Of a stretch of 64,000 nucleotides of DNA, positions 3,001 through 52,651 are shown one piece after another (within the stretch, counting starts at the first letter, position 1; the number at the start of each line of letters is the position of its first letter). Under the pieces are notes generated by a model. It saw only the letters and a program-made list of their open reading frames with translations, was not told the origin of the DNA and did no database searches. The stretch spans positions 1-64,000 of the forward strand of contig NQMI01000080.1 in the NCBI GenBank assembly GCA_002270565.1, written 5' to 3'. Made by a program: the position numbers and the translations under genes. This stretch comes from Stenocarpella maydis. Lineage: Eukaryota > Ascomycota > Sordariomycetes > Diaporthales > Diaporthaceae.

Positions 3001-6000
3001 CAGCAAAGCGACTGAGCCACATTTGACGGGCTGGCCCCGCACCTAGTGTATAACAGGGGCCGGCCAGTGTTGGATTAGATCTTGCTGCTTGTCAATGCCA
3101 GTGCCAGTCAGTGTCAAGCCCAACAAGACCGAGCCGAGGTGGGCATCGCGTCGTCGGTCACCTTTCCTGGCCCTGCTCTTGACCACGGCACAGCCACGAG
3201 GCCGGCGCATGTACGAGCATGCGGTCGGCTGAACCCACGCTAGAGGACACTCGGATGTCCAGCTGGGCGGGGATGGCGACGCTGATGTGTCGACGTGGCA
3301 TTCAATGCAGAATCGCAGCAGGGCCTGGGATGGCATTGTTGGAAAAGCCCATGTGTGATGGCACGTTCTGGTTGGACCGCCACGTGCGAATTCGAGGTCT
3401 GAAGCTGGGATCAGGAGCGAGGAGGGCGAGAGGGCAACGGAAAGAGGCCTAAGGTGTGGCGAACCTGTGGACGACAGGCCACAGCTCGCGCGGCTGCATG
3501 CGACGAGTGCCGATTGTTCCTGAGAAGGGTAATCACTAGCACTAGTCTGAGATATGCAACCGCCAGGGGTGGTTATGCTAGTGTAGTGTCGACTGCGTAT
3601 GCTCGGCTGGCGCGTGTTATATGCGAGGTGTCTGGTCGTACATGCATGCGGTGCTTGTCCATGAAGCGCCATCCAGAGACGGAGACGGGGGGCGACGGGC
3701 ACAGGCACGGGTACGGGTACGGGTACGGGGTACGGCTGTGGGGCCGGCCACGGGAGGCGACGTCAATGATGGCCGTCTCGTGTGGCTCGCAGTGTTGGGC
3801 TGCCTGCGCAGTGTACGGAGGGAGTACGGTTGATTGTCGGCCGGGTGCCTCAGCGAGGCGCCAGCCAGGGTGCAGGAGGATACTGGTCCATATGCCGCAG
3901 GAACCAGGCATTCGCAAACCTCAGCCCTGTCTTGTGGCCATCCTGCCATGCCAGGCCCTTTTTGGTTTTCCTGGGGGTCAGGGCACCACGTGGGAGTTGC
4001 ATCGGCCTCTGGCACGCCGCCGTTGTGGTCGTCGAATGCCATGGCAGAGGATGGAAAAGGCGAAGGGCGTGGCTGTGGCGGAGCATCTTGGCCGAGTCAG
4101 GCCGGAGGGAGCTTGTCTTGAACAGCGGCCAGCCTCGGCAGGTCAATACAAGGGTCCAGACGGCAACGACGAGGACCCTGGATTTTTCATTCGCACGGGC
4201 ACTTGGCACCAGGACTAGTGTACTCCGTACCCAGGCTAGACTATCCGCGTCACCGCCCAAAACGGAAAGTACAGCAGAAACCTGTCTTGAGGCCCCTGTT
4301 TCGATGCAATCGCCAGCAAGAATTCAAGACGAACCAGGACGAAAGAAAAAAGAAAAGAAAGAGAGAGAAAAGAATCTGTTGAGAGAGGCAGCCCATTAGC
4401 CAGCCAGCCTGCCTGCCTCTGGCTGAAGGATATCGTAATCAACCACTCAGTTTAGTGCTTGCTTCGGACAGAGCGAAACCTTGGGAGGGGAGGCTCGCAC
4501 TGCACCATCTACCACACCTACCTAGGTACACTACTATCAACCTTGGAAGTACCCATGTGCACCAAGTACCTTTTGTTGCTGTGTACCACCAGGTTGGCAG
4601 ATGCAGCGCAGCAGACCGGCAGCAGGTTCCTTCATCCTCCACCAACGCAACACACACACACCAATTATTCATTCCAATCCGAGCACCCCCCCAACCCTGC
4701 TTGTGTCTACTGCAACCTGGCATGATGACCAAGCGGCTCCAATCTTTGTCAACGGTCCGGCTCCGCGGCGATCCGCCCGACGGGCGACACTGCAAACTAC
4801 TGGTCTTGTGTTTTTCCTCCCCACCCTCAATTTGGGGTATTGGGGACGGCAACCCTTCCACCGGCGACGTCACCACTGCATGATGGGCGTACACAGAGGC
4901 TGGGATTGACGAATCAGACGGCCATGGTTGACGGAACAGCGAAGATCATGACGATCGATGTTCGTTTGGAAACACCTTGTCGTCGGCACGAGTTGCGGCA
5001 CAGGAATCATGTCCAATCCAGGGTCCCGGAACAGGCCAGAGAAGCCCTCGAACAAGCTCAGCCATGACATCGCCTCGTGTGCATGCTTGCATGCTCCCTC
5101 CCCATCTTTCGGGAAAACCCATCGACGCAGGACTGCAATTACGCTTCCCCGTTCAGTGTTCCCCATCATCACAATCATCACATCATAGTGCCTGACAAAG
5201 CCACCCCTAGAAACCATCAGCCAGCACTCGTGGCTTCTGGGCATGACCACGCGCACATGCAAAGACCAGCCAAGTAATGCGCAACACCACACGCAGCACC
5301 CACCCATTCCGACCGCGGCAAGCAACAGTACGTACACGACCCAGCTGAGTAACGGGGCCCCGCCCAGCTCGTTCGCAATGCAGAACCGGTCCATTATCTG
5401 CGTCTCAGCAAGCTGGATGCCACACAAGAATAACCCCCGATACTTTTTGGCATGTGTCACGGGCCCCGAGCAAGACGTCTGTCCCTACACTGTCATGCAC
5501 ACCAGGTTGAGGTCAGCCTCGAGCCCACAAACTCGGCCATGACTGTCGTGCTGCCGCGGTTGTTGTTCAATCTGTCCGTCAGCCCGGCCTCGCCCTGACG
5601 AGCGGACCTCTAAGTCCGGGTATCCAGGGATCGGCACGGAGACTGTCAGCACGCCCTCTTGTAAATCAATTCCTGTGGCTGCTGTAGTAGCCTCAAGCGT
5701 CCAGGCCAGATCCGGTACCTGGCAGTCTGACCCAGCACTAGCGTCCCAATGCTGTCGTGCGTGGCCTTTGCTCACCCGCCGGGGAATCGGCGAGAAGACG
5801 TTGCGGGGACGACGACATCCGCAACAACAGCCACACATGCCCGTTTGGTCTCTTTGCTGACCCGGCGTTCCTGTCACTGTCACCCCATCCCGTACAGCTT
5901 GTTATCATGGCCATGTGCACATCTCGAACATATATGAGAGCCCTTTCGCAGGTGGCCGGTCCCAAGAAAACGACTGTCGTGGTGTGACCGACTGCTGACA

Positions 6001-37876: not shown

Positions 37877-40800
37877 ATGGGCGTGGTTACTGAGTTCGAC
37901 GACAGAGACCAACATTTACTGGCTGAGACCGAAGCGTATCATCCCTATGAATATCAGGAAGAGGGCAACGGCTCTTGGGCCGGTGCCCTGCCGGTGAAGC
38001 AGTAGGTGTTCTTGATCTATCATGGAGACCCCGCAATCGCTAATCGGTTCGACCCAGGGGACTCTACGATCCTGATCTCGAGAAAGATGCGTGCGGTGTC
38101 GGTTTTGCCTGGCATGTAGCCCTCCCAGTCCGAGTCAAGCTCTAGCTAACGCTGTGTAGCCACATCAAGGGCAAGGCAAGCCACAAGATTGTGAGCGATG
38201 GTGAGTGAACGCAGCAGCCCAGACTTTGGTCTCTCTCAGCTTGGGCTGACTATTCCTAGCTCGCAACCTTCTTTGCAACATGACCCATCGAGGTGCGGTG
38301 GGATCTGATGCTCGTGACGGCGACGGTGCCGGTGTCATGACTTCGATTCCCTATAAGTTCTTCATCAAGAACTTCGAGCGCGAAGTTGGCATCAAACTCC
38401 CGCCTCCCGCACAGTACGCTGTGGGCAACCTGTTCTTCAACCCCGAGCCCGAGAAGCTGCAGGAGCAGCAACGGCAATTGGAAGATATTGCCGAATCTCT
38501 GGGCCTGCGAATCCTGGGATGGCGAGAGCCTCCCACCGATCCCAGCCTGCTCGGGCCTGCTGCCCTCAGTCGCCAACCTGTCATTCTCCAGCCTTTTGTG
38601 GTTCTCTCGTCCTACTACGGCTCCGGAAATGCGCCAGAAATGACCGACCCAGAGGAGTTCGACTTCAGGCACTTTGAGAGGCAGCTGTATATGTTGCGGA
38701 AGCGCGCCACGCACACCATTGGCCTCCACAACTGGTTCTACATCTGCTCGCTCTCCAACAAAAACATCGTTTACAAGGGCCAGCTCGCACCCGTTCAGGT
38801 CTACCAGTACTACCATGATCTAGTGAACGCCGACTACGAAGCTCACTTTGCTCTGGTACACTCTCGGTTCTCCACCAACACATTCCCATCGTGGGACCGT
38901 GCCCAGCCTCTTCGATGGGCCGCCCATAACGGTAGGTTCATTAACCCTCAAGCCGATCGCCTATTGGTATTGACATATTTCTAGGCGAAATCAACACCCT
39001 GCGTGGTAACAAGAACTGGATGAGGGCTCGCGAAGGTGTGATGCAGTCGGACGTGTTTGCGGATGAGTTGGAGATGCTGTATCCTATTGTTGAAGATGGT
39101 GGCTCTGATTCTGCTGCTTTTGACAATGTCCTCGAGCTGCTCACCATCAATGGTGTGCTCTCCTTACCGGAGGCTGTTATGCTGATGGTTCCCGAAGCGT
39201 GGCAGGATAATGCCCACATGGACCCCAAGAAGGCCGCTTTCTACGAGTGGGCCGCGTGCCAAATGGAGCCATGGGATGGCCCTGCTCTTTTCACCTTTGC
39301 CGATGGTCGCTTCTGCGGTGCTAACCTCGACCGTAACGGCCTCCGACCTTGCCGGTTCTATGTCATGGACGACGACCGCATCATCTGCGCCTCCGAGGTT
39401 GGTACCATCAGCGTAGAGCCTGAACGTGTGGTGCAAAAGGGTCGTCTGCAGCCTGGTCGCATGCTGTTGGTCGACACCCTGGAGGGGCGCATCATTGATG
39501 ACCGCGAGTTGAAGGAGAGAGTCTCTCAGCGACAAGACTTCCGCTCTTGGCTGGACAGTGAGCTCCTGAAGCTGGACAACGTCCTCAAGCTGTCTGAGGC
39601 TGACAAGTCCCTGGACTTGGCTGCCAAACTTGATTCCTATGCAGTCCAGGAAGACCCACTTCTGCACGCCTTCGGATACACCTTCGAGCAGGTCAGCCTT
39701 ATTCTTGCCCCAATGGCGGCTGACGAGAAGGAGGCCTTGGGCTCAATGGGCAACGACGCTCCCCTCGCCTGCCTTTCCAAGGAGCCGCAATTGCTTGCGA
39801 ACTACTTCAGGCAATTGTTTGCTCAGGTGACCAATCCTCCCATTGATCCTATTCGGGAGTCGATTGTCATGTCCTTGGAGTGCTATGTCGGACCCCAAGG
39901 CAACCTGCTGGAAATTGCTCCCGAGCAATGCGGTCGGCTGCTCCTCAAGAGCCCTATCCTCAGCATCCCGGAGCTCAACACGCTCAAGGCCATGTCCAAG
40001 CTGTATCCCGAGTGGACTGTCAAAGTCATCGACATTACATTCCCCAAGAAGGACGGCATTCAGGGCTACATCAAGCACCTCGATTACATCCGTGACCAGG
40101 CCACTGATGCCATTGAGCAGCGCAACCGTATCATCATCCTCTCTGACCGCAACACGTCGGCGGACCGCGTATCTGTCTCGACGCTGCTGGCGTCCGGAAT
40201 GGTTCACCATCACCTCGTTAACAACAAGTGGCGATCGATGGCCGCCATCGTTGTTGAGACTGCCGAGGCCCGTGAGGTCCAGCACATGTGCGTCCTGCTC
40301 GCCTACGGCGCTGATGGCATCAACCCGTACCTGGCAATGGAATGCATCTTGAAGCTGAACCGGGAGAAGCTCATCCGGAAGAACATGACCAACGATGACC
40401 TCATCAAGAACTACAAGCACTCTTGCGATGGTGGAATCCTCAAAGTCATGAGCAAGATGGGCATTTCTACGCTGGCCAGTTACAAGGGCGCCCAGATCTT
40501 CGAGGCCCTGGGAGTACACAACACCGTCGTGGAATTGGCTTTCAGAGGAACCGCCTCCCGTATCGGAGGCGTCACGCTCGAGCACATCGCAGAGGACGCC
40601 TTCAGGTTCCACGAGCGAGGATTTGCGACCCGCTACACCGTGGGCATCCCCGGTCTCACCGAGTCGGGCGAGTACCACTGGCGGGACGGCGGCGAGCCCC
40701 ACATCAACGACCCCGTCTCCATCGCCAACATCCAGGACGCGGTCCGCAACAAGAACGACAAGTCCTACGAGGCGTACTCCAAGTCTGAGTATGAACAGGT

Positions 40801-43800
40801 CAAGGCCTGCACGCTGCGCGGCATGCTGGACTTTGAGTTCGACGAGTCCAAGTCTATCCCTATCGACCAGGTCGAACCTTGGACCGAGATTGTCCGTCGT
40901 TTCTGCACTGGCGCCATGTCTTATGGATCCATCTCCATGGAGTCCCACGCTACACTCGCGGTGGTAAGCACAATTTCTACCACATCACCTCTTACCTCCG
41001 TATGTTCCGTCACATGTTACTAACGCCTTTTTTTCTTTCCAGGCAATGAATCGCCTCGGAGGGAAGTCCAACACTGGTGAGGGTGGAGAGGATCCCGAGC
41101 GGTCCCAAATCGACGAGTATGGCGACACCAGGCGGTCCGCTATCAAGCAGGTCGCATCTGGACGGTTCGGAGTTACCTCGGCATACCTGGCCGATTCAGA
41201 CGAACTTCAAATCAAGATGGCTCAGGGCGCAAAGCCAGGAGAAGGGGGAGAATTGCCAGGCCACAAGGTCAGCAAGAGTATCGCAAGAACCCGCCACTCG
41301 ACACCTGGTGTCGGTCTGATCTCACCCCCACCACACCACGACAGTAAGAGCTGCCTCACCTTCCCAAACCACACCCACCAAAGCTGCCTTCCTTTCCAAC
41401 ACGACTTTTTCTCTAACCACTGTTTGATCCAGTTTACTCCATTGAGGATCTGAAGCAGCTCATCTACGATCTCAAGTGTTCAAGCCCCCGCTCACGCGTC
41501 TCTGTCAAACTTGTCTCGGAGGCTGGCGTCGGTATCGTCGCCGCTGGTGTTGCAAAAGCCAAGGCTGACCACATCTTGATCTCTGGTCACGACGGCGGTA
41601 CTGGCGCGTCGCGTTGGACTGGCATCAAGCACGCCGGTCTCCCCTGGGAACTTGGTCTCGCAGAAACTCACCAAACACTTGTCTTGAACGACCTTCGTGG
41701 ACGTGTCGTCGTCCAAACTGACGGCCAATTGAGAACTGGCCGTGACGGTATGTCCAACTTTTCGTCCACGTGGCTTAACACCGCCACTGTCCTAATCGTT
41801 TTCCTAATCACAATACAGTTGCCATCGCCTGTCTCTTGGGAGCCGAGGAGTGGGGTTTCGCCACTGCTCCGCTCATCGCAATGGGCTGCATCATGGTAAG
41901 TCGTACTCCAGTAATAATCTTGTAATAACCATGAGGCTGTGGATGTTCCTTTTCTTACGCTGTCTATACAGATGCGCAAGTGTCTCACTGTTGACACCCT
42001 GGTGAGGACCAGTGACGGTCCCAAGAAGGTTTCAGAACTTGAAATTGGCGACGTTCTTTATGATGCGTCGAATCTACCAGTTCAATGTGTCGCTGTTGGC
42101 GACGTCCAGACAGGACAACTCAAAGAGGTTACCTACCAGCAGTTCAATGCCGGCGTCAAAGCGGAGACGTCCTTCAAGTGCACGCCTGATCATCTTCTCA
42201 CGCTCGTCGCCAATGCTGTTTCCCCACAAGTCAGCGGCCGACATCTTGTTTGGTACACGCGATGCAACCGTACTGAGCTTGAACATGAGATCGAGGATCT
42301 TACCTGGGATGATGCTGCAGCCGTTCTCTACAGCGACCTCGTCGATGAGGTAACTGATCAACCTGATGAGGACTTCGTCCAGGACTACGTCGACAGCGTT
42401 GTGAACGACCACTTCCATCAGGGTCACAGTAAATTCAGCAGCCTCATTGACCGAGCAGTACAAAAGCTTGCGCTTGACGATCTTGAGGATCACCAAGAAT
42501 TGGTTCGAAATGCACTGCACGACGCTATCGAGACGCATCGCAATGAGCTGCTGATGAATGAAGCCGACAACGACCAGCAGTCCAGTGACGTCGAAGACGA
42601 GTCGGATGAAGATATGGATGACGTCCAAAACCCCACTGACAACGACTTGGAGGTTTACGATTTGGGTATTCCATCTGACAACTCGTTCCATGAGCCTGCC
42701 ACGACGGAAAACTCGCAGCGTACCATTCCCGACTTCCAAGGTTCCCAGCAGACTGCCAACGATTGTCAGGCCTCGACGCTCACCTATGCTACGGAGTCAT
42801 ACCAGTATGTTAACGCAATCAATGCTGAGCGATTCTCGCGTCTGAAGTCGTCGTTGAACACTGGACATTGCTGCAGTGGCTTCCGCAGAATTCACCGGAC
42901 TATGGCGTCCAACGCCCATGCAGAGCTGGCGCGTTTAGTCCTTGCTAGCGAGCATCACCGTCTTATCGACCCCTACATTGTCAGAGATGGTGATATTCTG
43001 GAGATGACGCCTGACGAGTACAGTGGTATATGTTGCAAGGCCAACCTCAGGCTTTACCGGGCACCCCTTGCATTTGAGCCGGCGGAAATCAACAGCTCGC
43101 TGGTCCCTATTGACCCCTACTGGCTGGGCTTCTGGCTTGGCGATGGGAATAAGAACAGGACGTCGCTAATCTCTTCGGATCTCGAGATCAAGATTTTCGT
43201 CCATGACTACGTTAAACGACTCAATGCGCATCGTCCTGCTGGCAAGAAGTCCCTCAAGGTGACTGAGCGGAAAGGTCAGAGAGCTAGCGACTTTATGCCA
43301 GCGCTCGGTTACACTGCCAACGTCGACGTTGTCCACTACGACATCGTCAATTCTGCCGATAGCCCGGGCGCCACCTGGAATCCCGTCAAGGACGCCCTGA
43401 CGGAGTACGGCTTGCTGGGCAATAAATCCGGCGGAATCCCCGACGACTATATGACTGCGGACGAGGAGACGCGCCTCAAAGTCATCGCTGGACTCATCGA
43501 ATCAGACGGGTCATACATCAAGGATAGCAATGTCTACCAATTCGCGCAGATGGGCGAAGAGCATAAGAAAATTGTCGACGACCTCAAGAAGCTCGCCAAT
43601 AGCTGTGGTATCGAGACTCGGGGTCCTTTCGTGAGAGACATGCCGAACCACCGCGTCAACAACAAGAGTGGAGCCCAAGACTATTACTACATTTATCTTG
43701 GTCGTGGCTCGGCCAAATTTCAGCCTCACCTCTACATGCCACGCAAACGAATGGTCGTCAAGGACGGGAAATTCCGCAACACCGATCTCAGGCCTATTCT

Positions 43801-46800
43801 GCGTGTTGAGGATAGCCAGGCTGGTCAGTATCGTGCAATTCAAGTCGCTGGAGGCGTCTTTCAACTTGAGAATCGCCTCGTCGTCCATAACTGTCATCTC
43901 AACACCTGTGAGTTTTTGTCCCAAGCCACAATTCGACTACTCAATTGTACTAACATTCCCTAGGCCCGGTGGGAATTGCAACACAAGACCCGAAGTTGCG
44001 TGAGAAGTTCAAGGGAACACCTGAGCACGTCATCAACTTCTTCTACTACGTAGCCAACGAATTGCGGGCCATCATGGGCCAGCTTGGTTTCAGGACCATC
44101 AACGAGATGGTTGGCCGCGTCGAGTGCTTGAAGGTCCGAGATGACCTGCGGACACACAAGACCGAGAACCTCGATCTGGACCTCCTGCTCACCCCGGCGC
44201 ACTCCCTGCGGAGCGGTGTCGCCACATTCAACGTCAGGAAGCAGGACCACCGTCTCTATGTCCGCCTGGACAACAAGCTCATCTCCGAGGCCGAGCTCAC
44301 CTTGGACAAGGGTCTTCCAAGTCGTATCGAATGCGACATTGTCAACACAGACCGAGCCATGGGCACTTCGCTCTCTTACCAAATTTCCAAGCGTTATGGA
44401 GAGGCTGGTTTGCCGGTCGATACAGTCCACGTTTCCATCAAGGGATCTGCCGGACAGTCTTTTGGTGCTTTCTTGGCCCCTGGTGTAACCCTTGAGCTGG
44501 AGGGTGATTCCAACGACTATGTCGGCAAGGGTCTATCGGGTGGTCGTCTTGTCATCTACCCGCCTCGCTCCGCTGTGTTCAAGGCGGAAGAGAACGTGCT
44601 GATTGGCAACACGTGTCTGTACGGTGCCACTGCCGGCCACTGTTACTTCCGTGGTGTCGCAGCCGAGCGATTCGCCGTGCGGAACTCCGGCGCCCATGCC
44701 GTCGTAGAGGGTGTGGGTGATCACGGTTGCGAGTACATGACTGGAGGTCGTGTTGTCGTTCTGGGTAGCACAGGCCGTAACTTCGCTGCCGGCATGTCAG
44801 GTGGTATTGCGTACGTTCTCGACAAGGAGCACGACTTCCTTTCCAAGCTCAACGGAGAGATGGTGGAGGCTTCCGGTGTCGACGACCCCGCGGAGATTGC
44901 TTTCCTTCGGGGTATGATTGAGGACCACCACCACTACACGGGTTCTGAGCTTGCTGCTCGTATTCTGGTCGACTTCAACCGGGTCCTGCCTCGATTCGTC
45001 AAGGTTCTTCCAATCGACTACAAGCGAGTTCTCATGGAAGATGCCGCCAAGGCCGCAGAGGCCAAGAAGGCCGAGCTCAACTTACCCGCCATCCCAGGAA
45101 AGAAGGAGGAGAAGGCCAAGGCTGCGCCTCTCCAGGATATGGAGGAAGCCTTGGGAGACAGCAAGGCCGAGTCCAGGCGCGCACTTGTCCTAGACAAGAC
45201 CAGGGGCTTCATGAAGTACCACCGTCGTGCTGAGAAGTATCGTGATGTCAAGACCCGAACCAAGGACTGGGCCGAGCTTTCCTCGCGGCTGGACGAGGAC
45301 GAGCTCAAGTACCAGTCTGCACGATGCATGGACTGCGGCGTTCCCTTCTGCCAGTCTGACACCGGTTGTCCCATCTCAAACATCATTCCTAAGTGGAATG
45401 AATTAATTTTCCAGTGCCTGGATCCGAATACTCTTGTCCGCACGACTGAGGGTCAGAAGGCGATTCGCGATATCACCGTCGGTACCAAGCTTTTCGATCA
45501 CAACGACCTGCCTGTTCTCTGCACTGCCGTGGGAGATATCAAGACGAGCTCCACGATGAGGACCATCAAATACAAAGAGTGGAATTCCAAGACCGATGTG
45601 ACCTTCGACTGCACATCGGACCACATCATGTCCATGAAGTCGTACGGTGTCACGCCCAGCATCAAGCTCGGCTGTGTTGTGGTTTGGTATACCCGTTGTG
45701 ATCGCACTGAGCTCGTTGAAGAGATTAAGGATCTCAAGTGGGATGAGCTTGTGCATCGCCTTTATTCCGAGCTGTCCACTAAGATTGGACGCCGTCCAAC
45801 TGATACTGAAGCCCACGATCATATCAATTCTCTTGTGGATAAGTGGTCGGCCGCCCCTGAGGACGCAAAGAACACTCTTTCTCCTGCCTTTGAGCAGTTC
45901 AAGGCCTCTACTCCAGAGGCTGAGTTGGCTGGTAAGTTCTCTATCTCTCTATTTATTTCACTCCTGTCCTAATCTTTGTCCTAATCACTAAACGCTTTGT
46001 ATAATAACCATGCAATAATCATTCTAACGTTTACTAGATGTTGAGGACGACAGTCTTGAGCCAATCTTCCGTGCAGCTCTTCATGACCAGATGGATGAGT
46101 ATCTTGAGCACCTCATGCCCGAGCAAGAGGAGGTTCCTGATGATGAGGATGATCTGGAGGTCGACCTTGACGCCGTTCGCCCGCGCAAGTTCCGTGTCAT
46201 CTCGCGGATGCCCTCATCGACACACCCTTCGGACCCTTCATACCGCCCAACCGTGATTCCATCATCCTCGCCGCCTCAGCCAGAGTCCCAAGGCGCTCAA
46301 CAGTCTCAGAATACTGGGGAGTCTCAGGGCTCTTCGTACGCTGATACTATTCAGGTCGTTCGCGATGAGGATCACCTAGAGAAGTTTGCCGCTATCCGGG
46401 AGGCAATAGTTCCAAAGTGCACCCATCCTTCTGGGGCCTGCAAGGCGTTCAAGAAGTATCAGGTCCGATTCAAGAACGCGGAACAAGCCAAGCTTGCTCT
46501 CGACTTACTTTCTGGTGATCATTTCCACGTCGTGGATCCCTTTGCCGTCCAGAATGGTAATACCTGGACCATGACGCTCGATGAATACCAAGCCTCTTGC
46601 GCAAACGTCAACAATTCGGCCAACAGGAGGCTCAAACTATACCGAGCTCCCTTGAGGTTTGTTCCCTCTGAGGTACCAGCAACGTCTGTCCCGGTTGACC
46701 CATATTACTTGGGTTTTTGGCTTGGTGATGGTAATAAAAAGGACGCGGCAATTACCAGCACCGACCCGGAGATCAAGGCCTTTATCCAGGCGTATGTGGA

Positions 46801-48844
46801 TCGCCTAAACAATGAGAGACCTGAGGGAAAGGGTGTCTTGAAGCTCATTGAAAATATTACCCACCGGGCAGGCGACGAATCGGAAATCCAGCATCACGGG
46901 AGTCAGAGCAAGGAAACCATCACCAGCACGACGGACGTCTTCAGTTGGAGGATCTCTTCATCAGAGAAGGGTGAAGGCTTTTGGAATCCTGTCCTCAAGG
47001 GGCTGCGAGACCTAGGCTTCACGGGTGACAAGACTATAGGCATTCCTGACCGCTACATGAACGCGGATGAGGATACACGCCTGGCTGTCATCGCGGGCCT
47101 CGTTGAATCGGACGGCGCCCGAATCAACAAGTTCTACCGGTTCTCGCAACTGACCTATGAGCACAAGAAGATCGTGGAGGACCTTCGGAAGCTGGCTCTC
47201 TCCTGTGGTATTCAGTGCTCGCCCATCCGTGAGTACGAGATCAAGCATGGAACAGAGCCGCGATGGGAGTTCGACATCATCAAGGGCTGTGAGAAGTTCC
47301 AGCATCATCTCCTCCTCCCTCGGAAGAAGCTGGGTGATCTGATACCCGGCTGGAAGAACACCAACTGGGATGCCCATACTTTCCATGTTTCAGAGCCTCA
47401 CGATGGAGAATTCCGCGCCATTGAGGTCTCCGGCGGCCTCTACCAGCTCGCAAACCGCACCGTTGTGCACAATTGTCAATGGCAAGATGCTCTCAACCGT
47501 CTTCTCATGACCAACAACTTCCCCGAGTTCACCGGCCGTGTTTGCCCAGCTCCTTGTGAGGGTGCATGTGTCCTAGGCATTAACGAGGATCCTGTTGGCA
47601 TCAAGTCCATCGAGTGTGCCATCATCGACCGTGGCTTCGATATGGGATGGATGGTACCCCGCCCGCCACAGGTTCGTACTGGCAAGAAGATTGCCATTGT
47701 CGGCTCCGGTCCCGCTGGTCTTGCCGCTGCCGATCAGCTGAACCGGGCCGGTCACCTGGTCACCGTGTACGAGCGTGCCGACCGACTTGGTGGCTTGCTG
47801 ATGTACGGTATCCCCAACATGAAGCTTGACAAGCGCATCGTCAAGCGAAGGACCGACTTCATGGCTGCTGAGGGTGTCCAGTTCAAGACCGGTATCAGCG
47901 TTGGCGACGACGTGACGCTGAATGATCTCCGCGCGCAGAGCAATGCCGTTATCCTCGCCACTGGTGCGACAGTGGGCCGCGACCTGGCTATTGAGGGGCG
48001 TAACCTCAACGGTATTCATTTCGCCATGGAGTTCTTGCACAAGAACACGAAGTCCCTGCTCGACTCAGAGCTAGCTGACGGCAGTTACATCACGGCCAAG
48101 GACAAGCACGTTGTCGTCATTGGCGGTGGTGACACCGGCAATGACTGCATCGGCACGTCTGTCCGCCACGGCGCCAAGTCAGTCGTCAACTTTGAGCTCC
48201 TGCCTCAGCCAGCTGAGACGCGCCAGCGTGACAACCCTTGGCCTCAGTGGCCCCGCATCTACCGTGTCGACTACGGTCACAGCGAGGTGCGACAGCACAC
48301 CGGCAAGGACCCGCGTGAATACTGCATCAAGTCCTCCAAGTTTGTCAGCGATGGCAACGGCAACGTCAAGGGTATCGAGACGGTGCGTGTCGAGTGGAGC
48401 AAGGACGATGTCGGAAGGTGGGTCCTGAAGGACGTCGAGGGTAGCGAGGAGTTCTTCCCCGCCGACCTGGTGCTCCTGGCCATGGGTTTCCTGGGCCCCG
48501 AGCAACGCGCGATTGGGGATGAGGTCGAGAAGGACGCCCGGACTAACGTCAAGACGCCTGCGGGCAAATATTCGACAAACATCGACGGTGTCTTCGCCGC
48601 TGGTGATTGCCGACGTGGACAGTCTCTCATTGTCTGGTAAGTTATATAAGCTTTTGACACTTTTCATCAACGTATCTGTACTAACAACACTCTCAGGGGT
48701 ATCAACGAGGGTCGCCAGGCAGCTCGCGAGGTTGATCTCTACCTGGAGCATGCAACAAACCTCCCGGTCACCGGTGGTATCGTGAAGCATTCGGCACACG
48801 AGATTCTCAACAAGGTCAAGGCCACACCTCCCGTGGCCGCCTAG
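37877..48844 (+). CDS. glt1: NADH-dependent glutamate synthase (GOGAT) precursor with two inteins
   Basis: Makes two glutamates from glutamine, 2-oxoglutarate and NADH. Exons: 37877-38001, 38058-38111, 38160-38200, 38260-38931, 38985-40963, 41043-41343, 41433-41747, 41819-41895, 41972-43907, 43964-45931, 46038-48636, 48697-48844. The sum is 10215 nt (3404 residues). Removing inteins of 637 and 651 residues leaves 2116, the usual fungal size. Order: propeptide, catalytic Cys54 in EKDACGVGF, class II glutaminase, central domain, FMN domain ([19 protein letters not shown]) with the 3Fe-4S cysteines split by intein 1, GXGXG domain ([12 protein letters not shown]), 4Fe-4S segment [16 protein letters not shown], intein 2, [15 protein letters not shown] motif [14 protein letters not shown] and NADH motif GGGDTGNDC. 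Intron 2 (38112-38159) has a GC donor. All junctions keep frame. The start [11 protein letters not shown] is the usual fungal GLT1 N-terminus. Confidence 0.97.
38112..38159 (+). other. GC-AG intron in GLT1
   Basis: This 48-nt intron starts GCATGT and not GT, with branch GCTAAC and acceptor GTGTAG. It splits the cysteine codon in GVGFAC-HIKGK, a conserved GOGAT segment, so its position is fixed by the protein. GC-AG introns are a known minor class handled by the normal spliceosome. Confidence 0.85.
41981..43891 (+). mobile_element. Intein 1 in GLT1 with LAGLIDADG homing endonuclease
   Basis: In-frame protein-splicing element of 637 residues inside exon 9, between MRK and CHLNTCPVG. Splicing residues are all present: Cys1 in [13 protein letters not shown], the block-B T-x-x-H at residues 68-71 (TPDH), penultimate His and final Asn in LVVHN, and Cys at +1. 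The endonuclease has both LAGLIDADG-type motifs, LGFWLGDGN (382-390, Asp388) and IAGLIESDG (502-510, Asp509), so it is probably active or only recently inactive. Between block B and the endonuclease lies an extra region with [18 protein letters not shown] and an acidic low-complexity run near [12 protein letters not shown]. There is no stop or frameshift. Inteins in fungal GLT1 are known from other ascomycetes; whether this exact site is one of those needs an alignment. Confidence 0.95.
45415..47473 (+). mobile_element. Intein 2 in GLT1, interrupted by a spliceosomal intron
   Basis: Second protein-splicing element, 651 residues, between NELIFQ and [11 protein letters not shown], encoded by 45415-45931 and 46038-47473. 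Splicing residues are Cys1 in [14 protein letters not shown]-x-x-H at residues 67-70 (TSDH), TVVHN at the end and Cys at +1. The homing-endonuclease motifs are LGFWLGDGN (397-405, Asp403) and IAGLVESDG (524-532, Asp531). It is homologous to intein 1 along its whole length, including the extra WYTRC region. It also has its own low-complexity acidic and Ser/Pro/Gln-rich insert ([33 protein letters not shown]). The element is split by the intron at 45932-46037. Confidence 0.95.
45932..46037 (+). other. Spliceosomal intron inside intein 2
   Basis: A 106-nt segment begins GTAAGT, carries CTAAT and CTAAC branch-like motifs and ends TTACTAG. Read through, it gives an in-frame stop at 45970-45972. 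Removed, it joins GAG TTG GCT G to AT GTT GAG GAC and restores [20 protein letters not shown], which aligns with [17 protein letters not shown] in intein 1. The intron therefore lies in intein coding sequence, in phase 1, and is absent at the matching place in intein 1. Confidence 0.9.
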
Positions 48845-50134: not shown

Positions 50135-52651
50135 ATGCGCTTTGGCAAGACGCTCCAGACCTCATTCTACGAGCCATGGAAGGACAAATACCTCGACTAC
50201 CCGAAGCTGAAGAGCATGCTTCGTGAGGACGAATACGAGGAGGACGAATCTTGGACCGAGAACGACGAGACCAGGTTCAGCGACGAGATCTTCAACGTGC
50301 AGCTCGACAAGGTGACCAGCTTCCACGAGGAAAAGTTCAAGGAGCTCAGGGACCGCGTCGACTCCGCCTTTGACAAGCTCAAGGAGCTGCCCGCGTCCGA
50401 GGATGGCCAGCTGCGGAGCGAACTCGCCACCCAGCGCCTAAAGGAGCTCGAGGCCGAGCTGGATGGGATCACCAACGAGGTCAACGAGCTCAAGCGGTAC
50501 AGCAACCTGAACTACACAGGGTTCCTGAAGATCGTCAAGAAGCATGATCGCAAGAGGGGGCTGCGCTACAAGATCCGGCCATTGATGATGCAGCAGCTGT
50601 CGGATCGGCCCTTCAACTCGGAGCAGGCATATGGCCCCTTGATCCACAGGCTGTCATTGGCATACTTCACGGTTAAGCAGCAGTTGGAGGAGGGCGTCAG
50701 CGAGGAGGTCATGGCAGAGCTGCAGGATGGCGTGCAGGAGACCCGCAACGGCGAGACATATTCGGCGCACAAGTGTAAGTGGGCCGTTACCACAGAGACA
50801 CAACGTTGCACCTTGATTGCTGACCTGGTCTGCGGATAGTCTGGGTACATCCCGATAACCTGCTCGAGGTCAAGACCTTCATCATGCGCCGCCTGCCCAA
50901 CCTGGTATACAGCGAGGTTTCGGCAAAGGAGGTCGACGGCAACGAAGACCCCAGCCTGACTTCCCTCTACTTTGACAATTCCAAGTTCGACCTCTATAAG
51001 CGCAAGCTTGGGCGCGAGACAGAGGCGTCTTCATTACGCCTACGATGGTACGGGCAGTTGAGCGCCTCGCCCGAGATCTTCCTGGAACAAAAGATTGTCC
51101 ACGAGGGCGGCAGCAGCGAAGAGCGCAAGTTCACCATCAAGGCCAAGTACGTCAAGTCTTTTATTGATGGCGAGTACAAGATGGAAAAGACCATCGCCAA
51201 GATGGAGCGGCAGGGCCAGAGCGAGCAAGAAGTTGCAAAGTTCAAGGCGACGGTGAACGGCATCCAGGAGTTCATCAAGGAGCGCAAATTGCAGCCGATA
51301 GTGCGGGCAAACTACAAGCGCACTGCGTTCCAGAAACCAACAGACGATCGCATCCGCATCTCCATCGATACTGACCTTGCGTTTGTGCGCGAGGATACCT
51401 TGGACTCCAGGCGGCCGTGCCGCGACCCTAGCGAGTGGCACCGACTTGATATCGACAACAGGAACATCGGGTATCCTTTCAAGGACATCAATCAGAGCGA
51501 GGTGTCAAGGTTCCCACACGCCCTGTTAGAAATCAAGTTGAAGGAGGACGGGCGGCGCAAGCGACCAGAGTGGATTGAGGACCTCATGTCATCCCACATG
51601 GTGCACCCTGCAGCTCACTTCTCAAAGTTTGCGCACGGTGTTGCCGTCCTTTTCGACGACTACGTCAACACCCTGCCCTTCTGGCTGAGCGACCTGGACA
51701 AGGACATCCGCAAGGACCCACAAGCGGCGTTTGAGGAGGAGGAGCAGAAAAAAGCCAGGCGGGCTGCTGACGAGCAGGTTGTGGGAAGCCTGCTCGGCAA
51801 CAAGATGGGCTCGTTCCAGCCATCCAAGAGCTCGCCTGTCAGCAGGTCATACCTGGCAGAGCGCATCGCCAGCGAGAGCGGGGCCGGGCCGGCTGGCTCA
51901 TCCGCGTCCATCGCAGTGGCTGGCCGAGGGGGCCCCGGCGCGAACGGCGAGACCGCGCAGGGCGGGCAGCAGGACGAGCAAGGGGACGAGCCGCAGCAGC
52001 GGAGCTACGGCACCATCATGCCCTCCTTCTCGATCATCACGCGGTACGCCAAGTCGCGGCAGCGCAAGCGCGACAACGTGCAGCTGCCCGAGGGCGTCAC
52101 GGAGCCCGAGACGTGGATCAAGAACGAGGGCCCTCTCAAGGTGGAGCCCAAGGTGTGGCTGGCCAACGAGCGGACCTTTATGAAGTGGCAGCACATCTGC
52201 GTGCTGCTGGGCGGCCTGGCCGTCGCGCTGTACACGGCCGCGGGAAAGGACACGCTCGCCCTGGCCTTTGGCGTCGTCTACCTCGCCATCGCCGCCTTCG
52301 CCGGGGGCTGGGGCTGGCTCATGCACCGTGAGCGCAGGCAGATGATCATCGACCGCAGCGGGAGGGACTTTGACAACCTGGTCGGCCCCATGGTGATCAG
52401 CTTCGCGCTGGTGGCCGCCCTAGTGCTGAACTTTGTGTTCCAGGTGAGAAATGCCCTCCCTGTTCCTGCCCGCCCACAAGGCTCGTCTCAGTGTATCCTG
52501 TGTTTTCCAAGTGGTAGGGCTTCCCGCTGACCTGTTGGCCTCTCTGCTCTAGTACCGCGCTGCTGTTCAGCGATTTGAATCAGACGTAATCCTTGGGCGT
52601 AGGAACTCGACCATAGCGCCGTTACCTGTCGTGGATGAGCTCCTCCGATGA
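50135..52651 (+). CDS. vtc2: Vacuolar transporter chaperone, Vtc2/Vtc3-type SPX-VTC protein
   Basis: Regulatory subunit of the vacuolar polyphosphate polymerase. Three exons: 50135-50774, 50840-52443 and 52553-52651; introns 65 and 109 nt; 780 residues. The N-terminal SPX domain starts MRFGKTLQTSFYEPWKDKYL and has the Lys-rich inositol-pyrophosphate-binding helix (NYTGFLKIVKKHDRK). The tunnel-type (TTM) domain follows (TSLYFDNSKFDLYKRK, LRLRWYGQL, FLEQKIVHEGG, ERKFTIKAKYV), then a Ser/Gly/Gln-rich linker and a three-span membrane domain (HICVLLGGLAVALYTAAG; LALAFGVVYLAIAAFAGG; PMVISFALVAALVLNFVFQ). The last exon adds YRAAVQRFESDVILG. The MxFGxxL...PWK..Y start and the length favour Vtc2/Vtc3 over the catalytic Vtc4. 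Vtc2 and Vtc3 cannot be told apart here, so the symbol is tentative. Confidence 0.88.

What the first reader, a model, noticed from the sequence alone, without database searches (positions are those of the whole stretch)
41981..47473. One gene, two inteins: a doubly interrupted glutamate synthase
GLT1 carries two complete, separate inteins (637 and 651 residues) that together make up 38 percent of the precursor. Both keep all the residues needed for protein splicing (Cys1, TxxH, His-Asn, Cys+1). Without both, the enzyme has the usual 2116 residues. Single inteins in fungal GLT1 are established; two full-length ones in the same nuclear gene seem rare, and I do not know of this exact pair. Each enzyme molecule needs two successful protein-splicing events.
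Basis: partly seen in the sequence, partly recalled or inferred. Interest (0 to 1): 0.9.

Follow-up and report, generated by a model that had tools for sequence, protein, structure and literature searches.

The report
Two separately acquired inteins, one gene
A fungal gene for the nitrogen enzyme glutamate synthase carries two self-removing protein inserts of different lineages, one at a long-known position and one at a position I could not find described, and the second belongs to a group that seems to jump between unrelated genes.

Summary
Confirmed. GLT1 (37877-48844, +) encodes a 3404-residue precursor with two inteins of 637 and 651 residues; without them 2116 remain. Both keep the splicing residues and both LAGLIDADG aspartates. 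Neither can be removed precisely as a GT-AG intron. The host is Diaporthe-like (first extein part 96% identical to D. citri).

Tests add four things. (1) Intein 1 sits at the known site MRK|CHLNTC. Intein 2 sits at FQ|CQWQ, which I found in none of the passages or listings seen. (2) They are not a within-gene duplication (AU p 5e-110); intein 2 groups with inteins in chitin synthase, SNF5, Sel1-repeat and kinesin proteins. (3) D. citri has an intein of intein 2's clade at the site that intein 1 occupies here. (4) At six of six new-site placements that could be compared, intein-free relatives have no Cys at +1, so the Cys seems to come with the element.

Intein 2 also contains a spliceosomal intron; six of six N-terminal site-b relatives break there.

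Splicing and homing are inferred. Of 21 returned GLT1 proteins showing both sites, none has two inteins.

The parts
37877..48844 (+). GLT1 (NADH-glutamate synthase) gene, 12 exons, precursor 3404 aa
   Evidence: spliced model without internal stop; extein 96% identical to D. citri INS49_011307
41981..43891 (+). Intein 1, 637 aa, site a (MRK|CHLNTC), with LAGLIDADG endonuclease
   Evidence: homologues at the same site; model matches PI-SceI
45415..47473 (+). Intein 2, 651 aa, site b (FQ|CQWQ), with LAGLIDADG endonuclease
   Evidence: homologues at the same site
45932..46037 (+). Spliceosomal intron (106 nt, GT-AG, phase 1) inside intein 2
   Evidence: 6 of 6 site-b N-part rows end at the same residue
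43892..43894 (+). Cys+1 codon of intein 1 (first Cys of CHLNTC, present in intein-free enzymes as recalled)
47474..47476 (+). Cys+1 codon of intein 2; N, D, G or S in 21 of 21 rows without an intein there
41896..41971 (+). Intron ending 9 nt before intein 1
43908..43963 (+). Intron starting 16 nt after intein 1

Best explanation
Both elements are full-length inteins of the fungal GLT/CHS kind. After mRNA splicing, which also removes an intron from within intein 2, ribosomes make a 3404-residue precursor. Each Hint domain then excises its own intein (N-S shift at Cys1, transfer to Cys+1, Asn cyclisation, S-N shift), leaving a 2116-residue enzyme. The two arrived separately. Intein 1 occupies the old site a. 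Intein 2 comes from a clade found in several unrelated nuclear genes and seems to bring its own +1 Cys. Shown here: anatomy, intact motifs, sites, separate lineages. Inferred: that splicing is efficient, that the endonucleases cut, and how new sites are reached.
For: Intact splicing and endonuclease residues in both; homologues over the full length of each; no precise GT-AG removal; PI-SceI fold match of intein 1, E 2.9e-16, and of the second exon of intein 2, E 1e-8; intein 2 in a 23-row clade with 100/99 support that excludes intein 1; holding the two together rejected, p-AU 5e-110; +1 residue not Cys in intein-free relatives at 6 of 6 placements compared.
Against: No splicing or cleavage was observed. 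Pfam Hom_end passes its cut-off only on intein 1 (24.0 against 21.1 bits) and not on intein 2 (17.5); Hint_2 on intein 1 is below cut-off. Models are of middling or low confidence (mean pLDDT 73 and 57) and whole-chain TM-scores to PI-SceI are low (0.27-0.41 in rows 1-11). Intein 1 sits on a long branch between the two clades, so its membership of the site-a clade is unsure.
Confidence: 0.85

Rival explanations
1. The second intein arose by copying the first within the gene.
For: Both lie in one gene and are homologous, 39% identical.
Against: A tree that holds them together is rejected, p-AU 5e-110. Intein 2 is 72% identical to the intein of an SNF5-domain protein and 52% to the D. citri site-a intein.
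Confidence: 0.02
2. One or both elements are removed as introns, or no longer splice, so the gene makes no full enzyme.
For: Introns flank intein 1 closely and one lies inside intein 2. No expression data.
Against: No slide of either boundary gives GT...AG; the gene's introns are 48-106 nt; splicing residues are intact; the extein frame is intact.
Confidence: 0.06
3. The two inteins serve the host as redox- or metal-sensitive switches of glutamate synthase.
For: Both lie in cysteine-rich regions (CHLNTC; between CMDCGVPFC and CPAPCEGAC; iron-sulphur roles recalled). Two DnaB inteins of Mycobacterium smegmatis are differentially responsive to stress (PMC6195587, start of abstract in search listings).
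Against: Patchy distribution, different lineages at site a in near relatives, and intact endonuclease aspartates fit a mobile element. No test of regulation was made.
Confidence: 0.1
4. Cys was already at +1 in the ancestor at each clade II site, so nothing was imported.
For: Single residues can change; one row has Ser at site b and the kinesin relative has Thr, both usable nucleophiles. Only one or a few intein-free relatives were seen per site.
Against: 0 Cys in 21 rows at site b; A, G, V, V and T at the five other placements.
Confidence: 0.2

Closest known systems
GLT1 inteins at site a (GLTi-a)
   Same: Intein 1: same host and same site MRK|CHLNTC as other fungal GLT1 inteins; full-length with endonuclease. 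GLT1 inteins are reported in Debaryomyces, Pichia, Podospora and Phaeosphaeria (PMC1635734, passages).
   Different: Intein 1 is divergent (36-43% identity among site-a rows of full length, long branch) and shares its gene with a second intein.
Chitin synthase inteins (CHSi)
   Same: Intein 2 groups with 11 chitin synthase inteins against the site-a inteins (100/99). GLTi-CHSi kinship and intragenomic transfer are proposed in PMC5784728 (passages).
   Different: Intein 2 lies in GLT1 at site b and holds an intron; nearest intein by identity over full length is in an SNF5-domain protein (72%).
Genes with two or more inteins in prokaryotes (haloarchaeal MCM, Mycobacterium smegmatis DnaB)
   Same: Two inteins in one gene, each with its own site; a Pro to Ser change at +1 brought by the MCM-d intein is reported (PMC10643990, passages).
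   Different: Prokaryotic, other host proteins, no mRNA introns.
PRP8 inteins
   Same: Fungal nuclear inteins with introns close to the insertion site (PMC1508164, passages) and at seven sites across species (PMC6805012, passages).
   Different: Other host and lineage; no gene with two at once appeared in the passages seen.

Membership tests
Intein | Cys/Ser at position 1, TxxH, terminal His-Asn, Cys/Ser/Thr at +1 | tested here: met
   both inteins
Intein | In-frame insert in a conserved protein, absent from homologues at the same site | tested here: met
   site b empty in 21 of 21 rows; for site a no intein-free row was aligned here, empty site a is recalled from known enzymes
Intein | LAGLIDADG endonuclease with both catalytic Asp (full-length intein) | tested here: met
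   intein 1 D388 and D509, intein 2 D403 and D531, from block positions
Intein | Match to curated Hint or Hom_end models above cut-off | tested here: inconclusive
   Hom_end above cut-off on intein 1 only; Hint_2 below
Intein | Hint plus endonuclease fold | tested here: met
   intein 1 to PI-SceI E 2.9e-16, low TM; intein 2 second exon only, low-confidence model
Intein | Autocatalytic protein splicing | not testable with these tools
   needs expression
GLTi-a (GLT1 site a) | Insertion at MRK|CHLNTC | tested here: met
   intein 1
GLTi-a (GLT1 site a) | Intein 1 groups with other site-a inteins | tested here: inconclusive
   outside clade II (100/99) but on a long branch between clades, and the split joining it to clade II has 95/83 in the unrooted tree; joins P0052 in a smaller tree with a long-branch warning
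GLTi-a (GLT1 site a) | Intein 2 at the same site | tested here: not met
   intein 2 is at FQ|CQWQ, so it is filed as a site-b intein
Clade with chitin synthase inteins | Intein 2 groups with CHS inteins against site-a inteins | tested here: met
   23-row clade, 100/99

The most novel reading that the evidence does not exclude
Clade II is a promiscuous family of eukaryotic nuclear inteins. It moves between unrelated genes (GLT1 at two sites, chitin synthase at several, SNF5, Sel1-repeat, kinesin), replacing one host codon by 'intein plus Cys'. It therefore carries its own splicing nucleophile and is not limited to sites that already have one. The double GLT1 is what results when such an element joins an older resident intein in the same gene, and in Diaporthe the two lineages compete for site a.
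Probability: 0.5. Interest if true: 0.78.

Novelty: new variant of a known kind. Interest (0 to 1): 0.62.

Why it matters
Inteins are thought to reach new sites very rarely, and a site must offer a suitable flanking residue such as Cys or Ser (PMC1635734, passages). A nuclear gene with two separately acquired full-length inteins, a site a held by different lineages in near relatives, and a clade spread over several genes with Cys at +1 where relatives have none would make two questions directly testable: how inteins jump, and how one enzyme copes with two. It is also a natural case of RNA splicing nested inside protein splicing.

Tried and rejected
Within-gene duplication: rejected. Removal as introns: no precise GT-AG pair. 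A mosaic origin of intein 1: a 60-residue scan showed a slight rise towards clade II at residues 321-420 and no clear switch. SNF5 intein nested inside the site-b inteins: seen in the 51-row tree, not upheld when site-b N-parts were added (site b as one clade not rejected, p 0.29), so only close kinship is claimed. Transfer to SNF5 through an intron-free copy: considered and dropped, because P0030 may be a transcript contig. Shared flanking residues as an endonuclease target: none seen by eye beyond the Cys; the DNA of the other sites was not at hand. A second GLT1 copy: none found with one extein piece. Whether the +1 Cys of SNF5 is new: untested, that search did not complete. All site-a inteins (with the three Lipomyces rows) as one clade is rejected only at p 0.02.

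Rows: the main tree used 49 of 87 returned proteins, my choice (near-duplicates, many partial rows and prokaryotic rows left out), plus the two window inteins. The search scored only the 7988 candidates sharing most words.

Full report
Gene and inteins. The window lies on a 214-kb contig of a 53.5-Mb assembly. GLT1 runs from 37877 to 48844 on the + strand and after 11 introns encodes 3404 residues. A first model failed; a GC-AG intron at 38112-38159 gave an open frame. Intein 1 is 637 aa at 41981-43891 and intein 2 is 651 aa at 45415-47473; the protein without them has 2116 aa. The first extein part (1191 residues) is 96.2% identical to Diaporthe citri INS49_011307 and 83% to a Fusarium lateritium protein, and a D. 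citri chitin synthase is 91% and 97% identical in two pieces to its counterpart in this genome. The host is therefore a Diaporthe or a near relative (inferred).

Intactness. Both inteins keep Cys1, TxxH, His-Asn and Cys+1 and the block C and block E aspartates. Pfam Hom_end passes its cut-off on intein 1 (24.0 against 21.1 bits) but not on intein 2 (17.5); Hint_2 on intein 1 is below cut-off. An AlphaFold2 model of intein 1 (mean pLDDT 73) matches PI-SceI at E 2.9e-16, although whole-chain TM-scores are low (0.27 and 0.39 for the top row). A low-confidence model of intein 2's second exon alone (mean pLDDT 57) matches PI-SceI and I-DmoI. Sliding either boundary never gives GT...AG, and the gene's introns are 48-106 nt. 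GC3 is 0.69 in the extein and 0.61 and 0.62 in the inteins; codon fractions correlate with the extein at r 0.80 and 0.86.

Sites. Site a is MRK|CHLNTC; I recall its first Cys as an iron-sulphur ligand. Site b is FQ|CQWQDAL, between two cysteine motifs. In 21 returned GLT1 rows both sites can be read; all 21 have an intein at site a, none at site b, and the residue at the site-b position is N in 12, D in 5, G in 3, S in 1. Site b is occupied elsewhere: P0037 and P0046 hold the C-terminal part followed by CQWQDAL; P0071, P0072, P0074, P0075, P0077 and P0079 hold the N-terminal part after WNEL(V/I)F and one residue, and six of six end just after the residue where intein 2 has its intron, reading on as SK or GK, as a GTAAG donor would. 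Extein identity to the window is 72.5-96.6% for these six (middle part) and 78.2% and 95.9% for P0037 and P0046 (C-terminal part). Site b and its nested intron thus predate Diaporthe or have spread between fungi. These eight rows come from unnamed sources and do not show site a, except that P0074 reads into CHLNTC from a stretch that is no intein end.

Origins. In a tree of 51 inteins a 23-row clade (100/99) holds intein 2 with two site-b relatives, 11 chitin synthase inteins, three Sel1-repeat, one SNF5, one kinesin, a free Dissoconium record, one unknown host, and two site-a inteins (D. citri P0001, and P0032). Host names follow Pfam accessions or source names; the meaning of the accessions is recalled. 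Intein 1 lies outside this clade, on a long branch between it and the other site-a inteins; the unrooted tree has a split on either side of it (100/99 and 95/83), and a smaller tree joins it to P0052 with a long-branch warning. Holding inteins 1 and 2 together is rejected at p 5e-110. All site-a inteins plus the Lipomyces rows as one clade is rejected at p 0.02. D. citri's site-a intein is 52% identical to intein 2 and 36% to intein 1, while the exteins are 96% identical. Site a has thus been filled by different lineages in nearly identical genes. D. citri's record stops before site b, so whether it has a second intein is unknown.

The +1 Cys. Clade II hosts against intein-free counterparts: Sel1-repeat RA-A-MLGD empty, RA|C-TLGD occupied; chitin synthase GRY-G-SNLL against GKF|C-SNLL, NPL-V-AVQN against NPL|C-AMQN, QKA-V-QAHV against QKT|C-QAHV; kinesin GK-T-YTM against C-DSM, with the N-flank not visible; GLT1 site b N/D/G/S against C. 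That is six of six placements compared with no Cys in the intein-free form. Ser (one row at site b) and Thr (kinesin) could also serve as nucleophiles. Further chitin synthase placements (P0035, and P0036, P0038, P0045, P0049) align less clearly and are not counted; SNF5, P0048 and Dissoconium were not tested. The D. citri site-a intein has the CHLNTC Cys at +1. A Pro to Ser change brought by an archaeal intein is on record (PMC10643990, passages), so the principle has a precedent; the breadth is what looks new.

Literature. I read passages of PMC5056185, PMC5784728 (also its outline and section 8), PMC1635734, PMC1508164, PMC6805012, PMC8529194, PMC10643990 and PMC2814812. They report GLT1 inteins (GLTi-a the only GLT1 site named in what I read), chitin synthase inteins and their kinship. 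Neither these passages nor the listings of nine searches showed a GLT1 gene with two inteins, site b, or inteins in SNF5, Sel1-repeat or kinesin genes; only SNF5 was a search term. Subscription papers, among them Poulter et al. 2007 on fungal nuclear inteins (cited in PMC5056185), were not seen, nor were supplementary tables.

Judgement. The parts are of known kinds: full-length inteins and intragenomic spread. What stands out is the separate origin of the pair, the second site, the nested intron, and the spread of a clade with Cys at +1 where relatives have none. Function was not tested.

Noticed in passing
L014 about 3390-5250 (own genome C209:194890-196750): A decayed intein-like stretch with stop codons and without Cys1, seemingly inside an intron of a coronin-like gene (name recalled), between exons ending NLLK and starting VNPEYLS.
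   Followed up: partly
L015, minus strand (own genome C111, around 789800-792600): A third intact-looking intein, in a gene that reads like PRP8 (name recalled); only weak matches to inteins 1 and 2.
   Followed up: partly
45932-46037: Spliceosomal intron inside intein 2; 6 of 6 site-b N-part rows end at the same place.
   Followed up: yes
P0074 residues 1-23: A site-b-bearing GLT1 whose frame reads ...ISQ|CHLNTC, as if an intron ended exactly at the site-a insertion point.
   Followed up: no
P0053, P0064, P0067, P0068, P0070: Free-standing intein-like ORFs of Lipomyces beginning MNPSQG or similar, with Gly in place of Cys1; three of them (P0053, P0064, P0068) form one group among site-a inteins.
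   Followed up: no
P0055 around residue 338: In a kinesin-motor protein the intein is followed by CDSMSGDM where the window genome's relative has TYTMSGDM, so the Cys falls at the Walker A Thr.
   Followed up: partly
38112-38159: A GC-AG intron is needed to keep the GLT1 frame.
   Followed up: no
50135-52530: The next gene downstream begins like a VTC/SPX polyphosphate synthase (recognised from memory).
   Followed up: no
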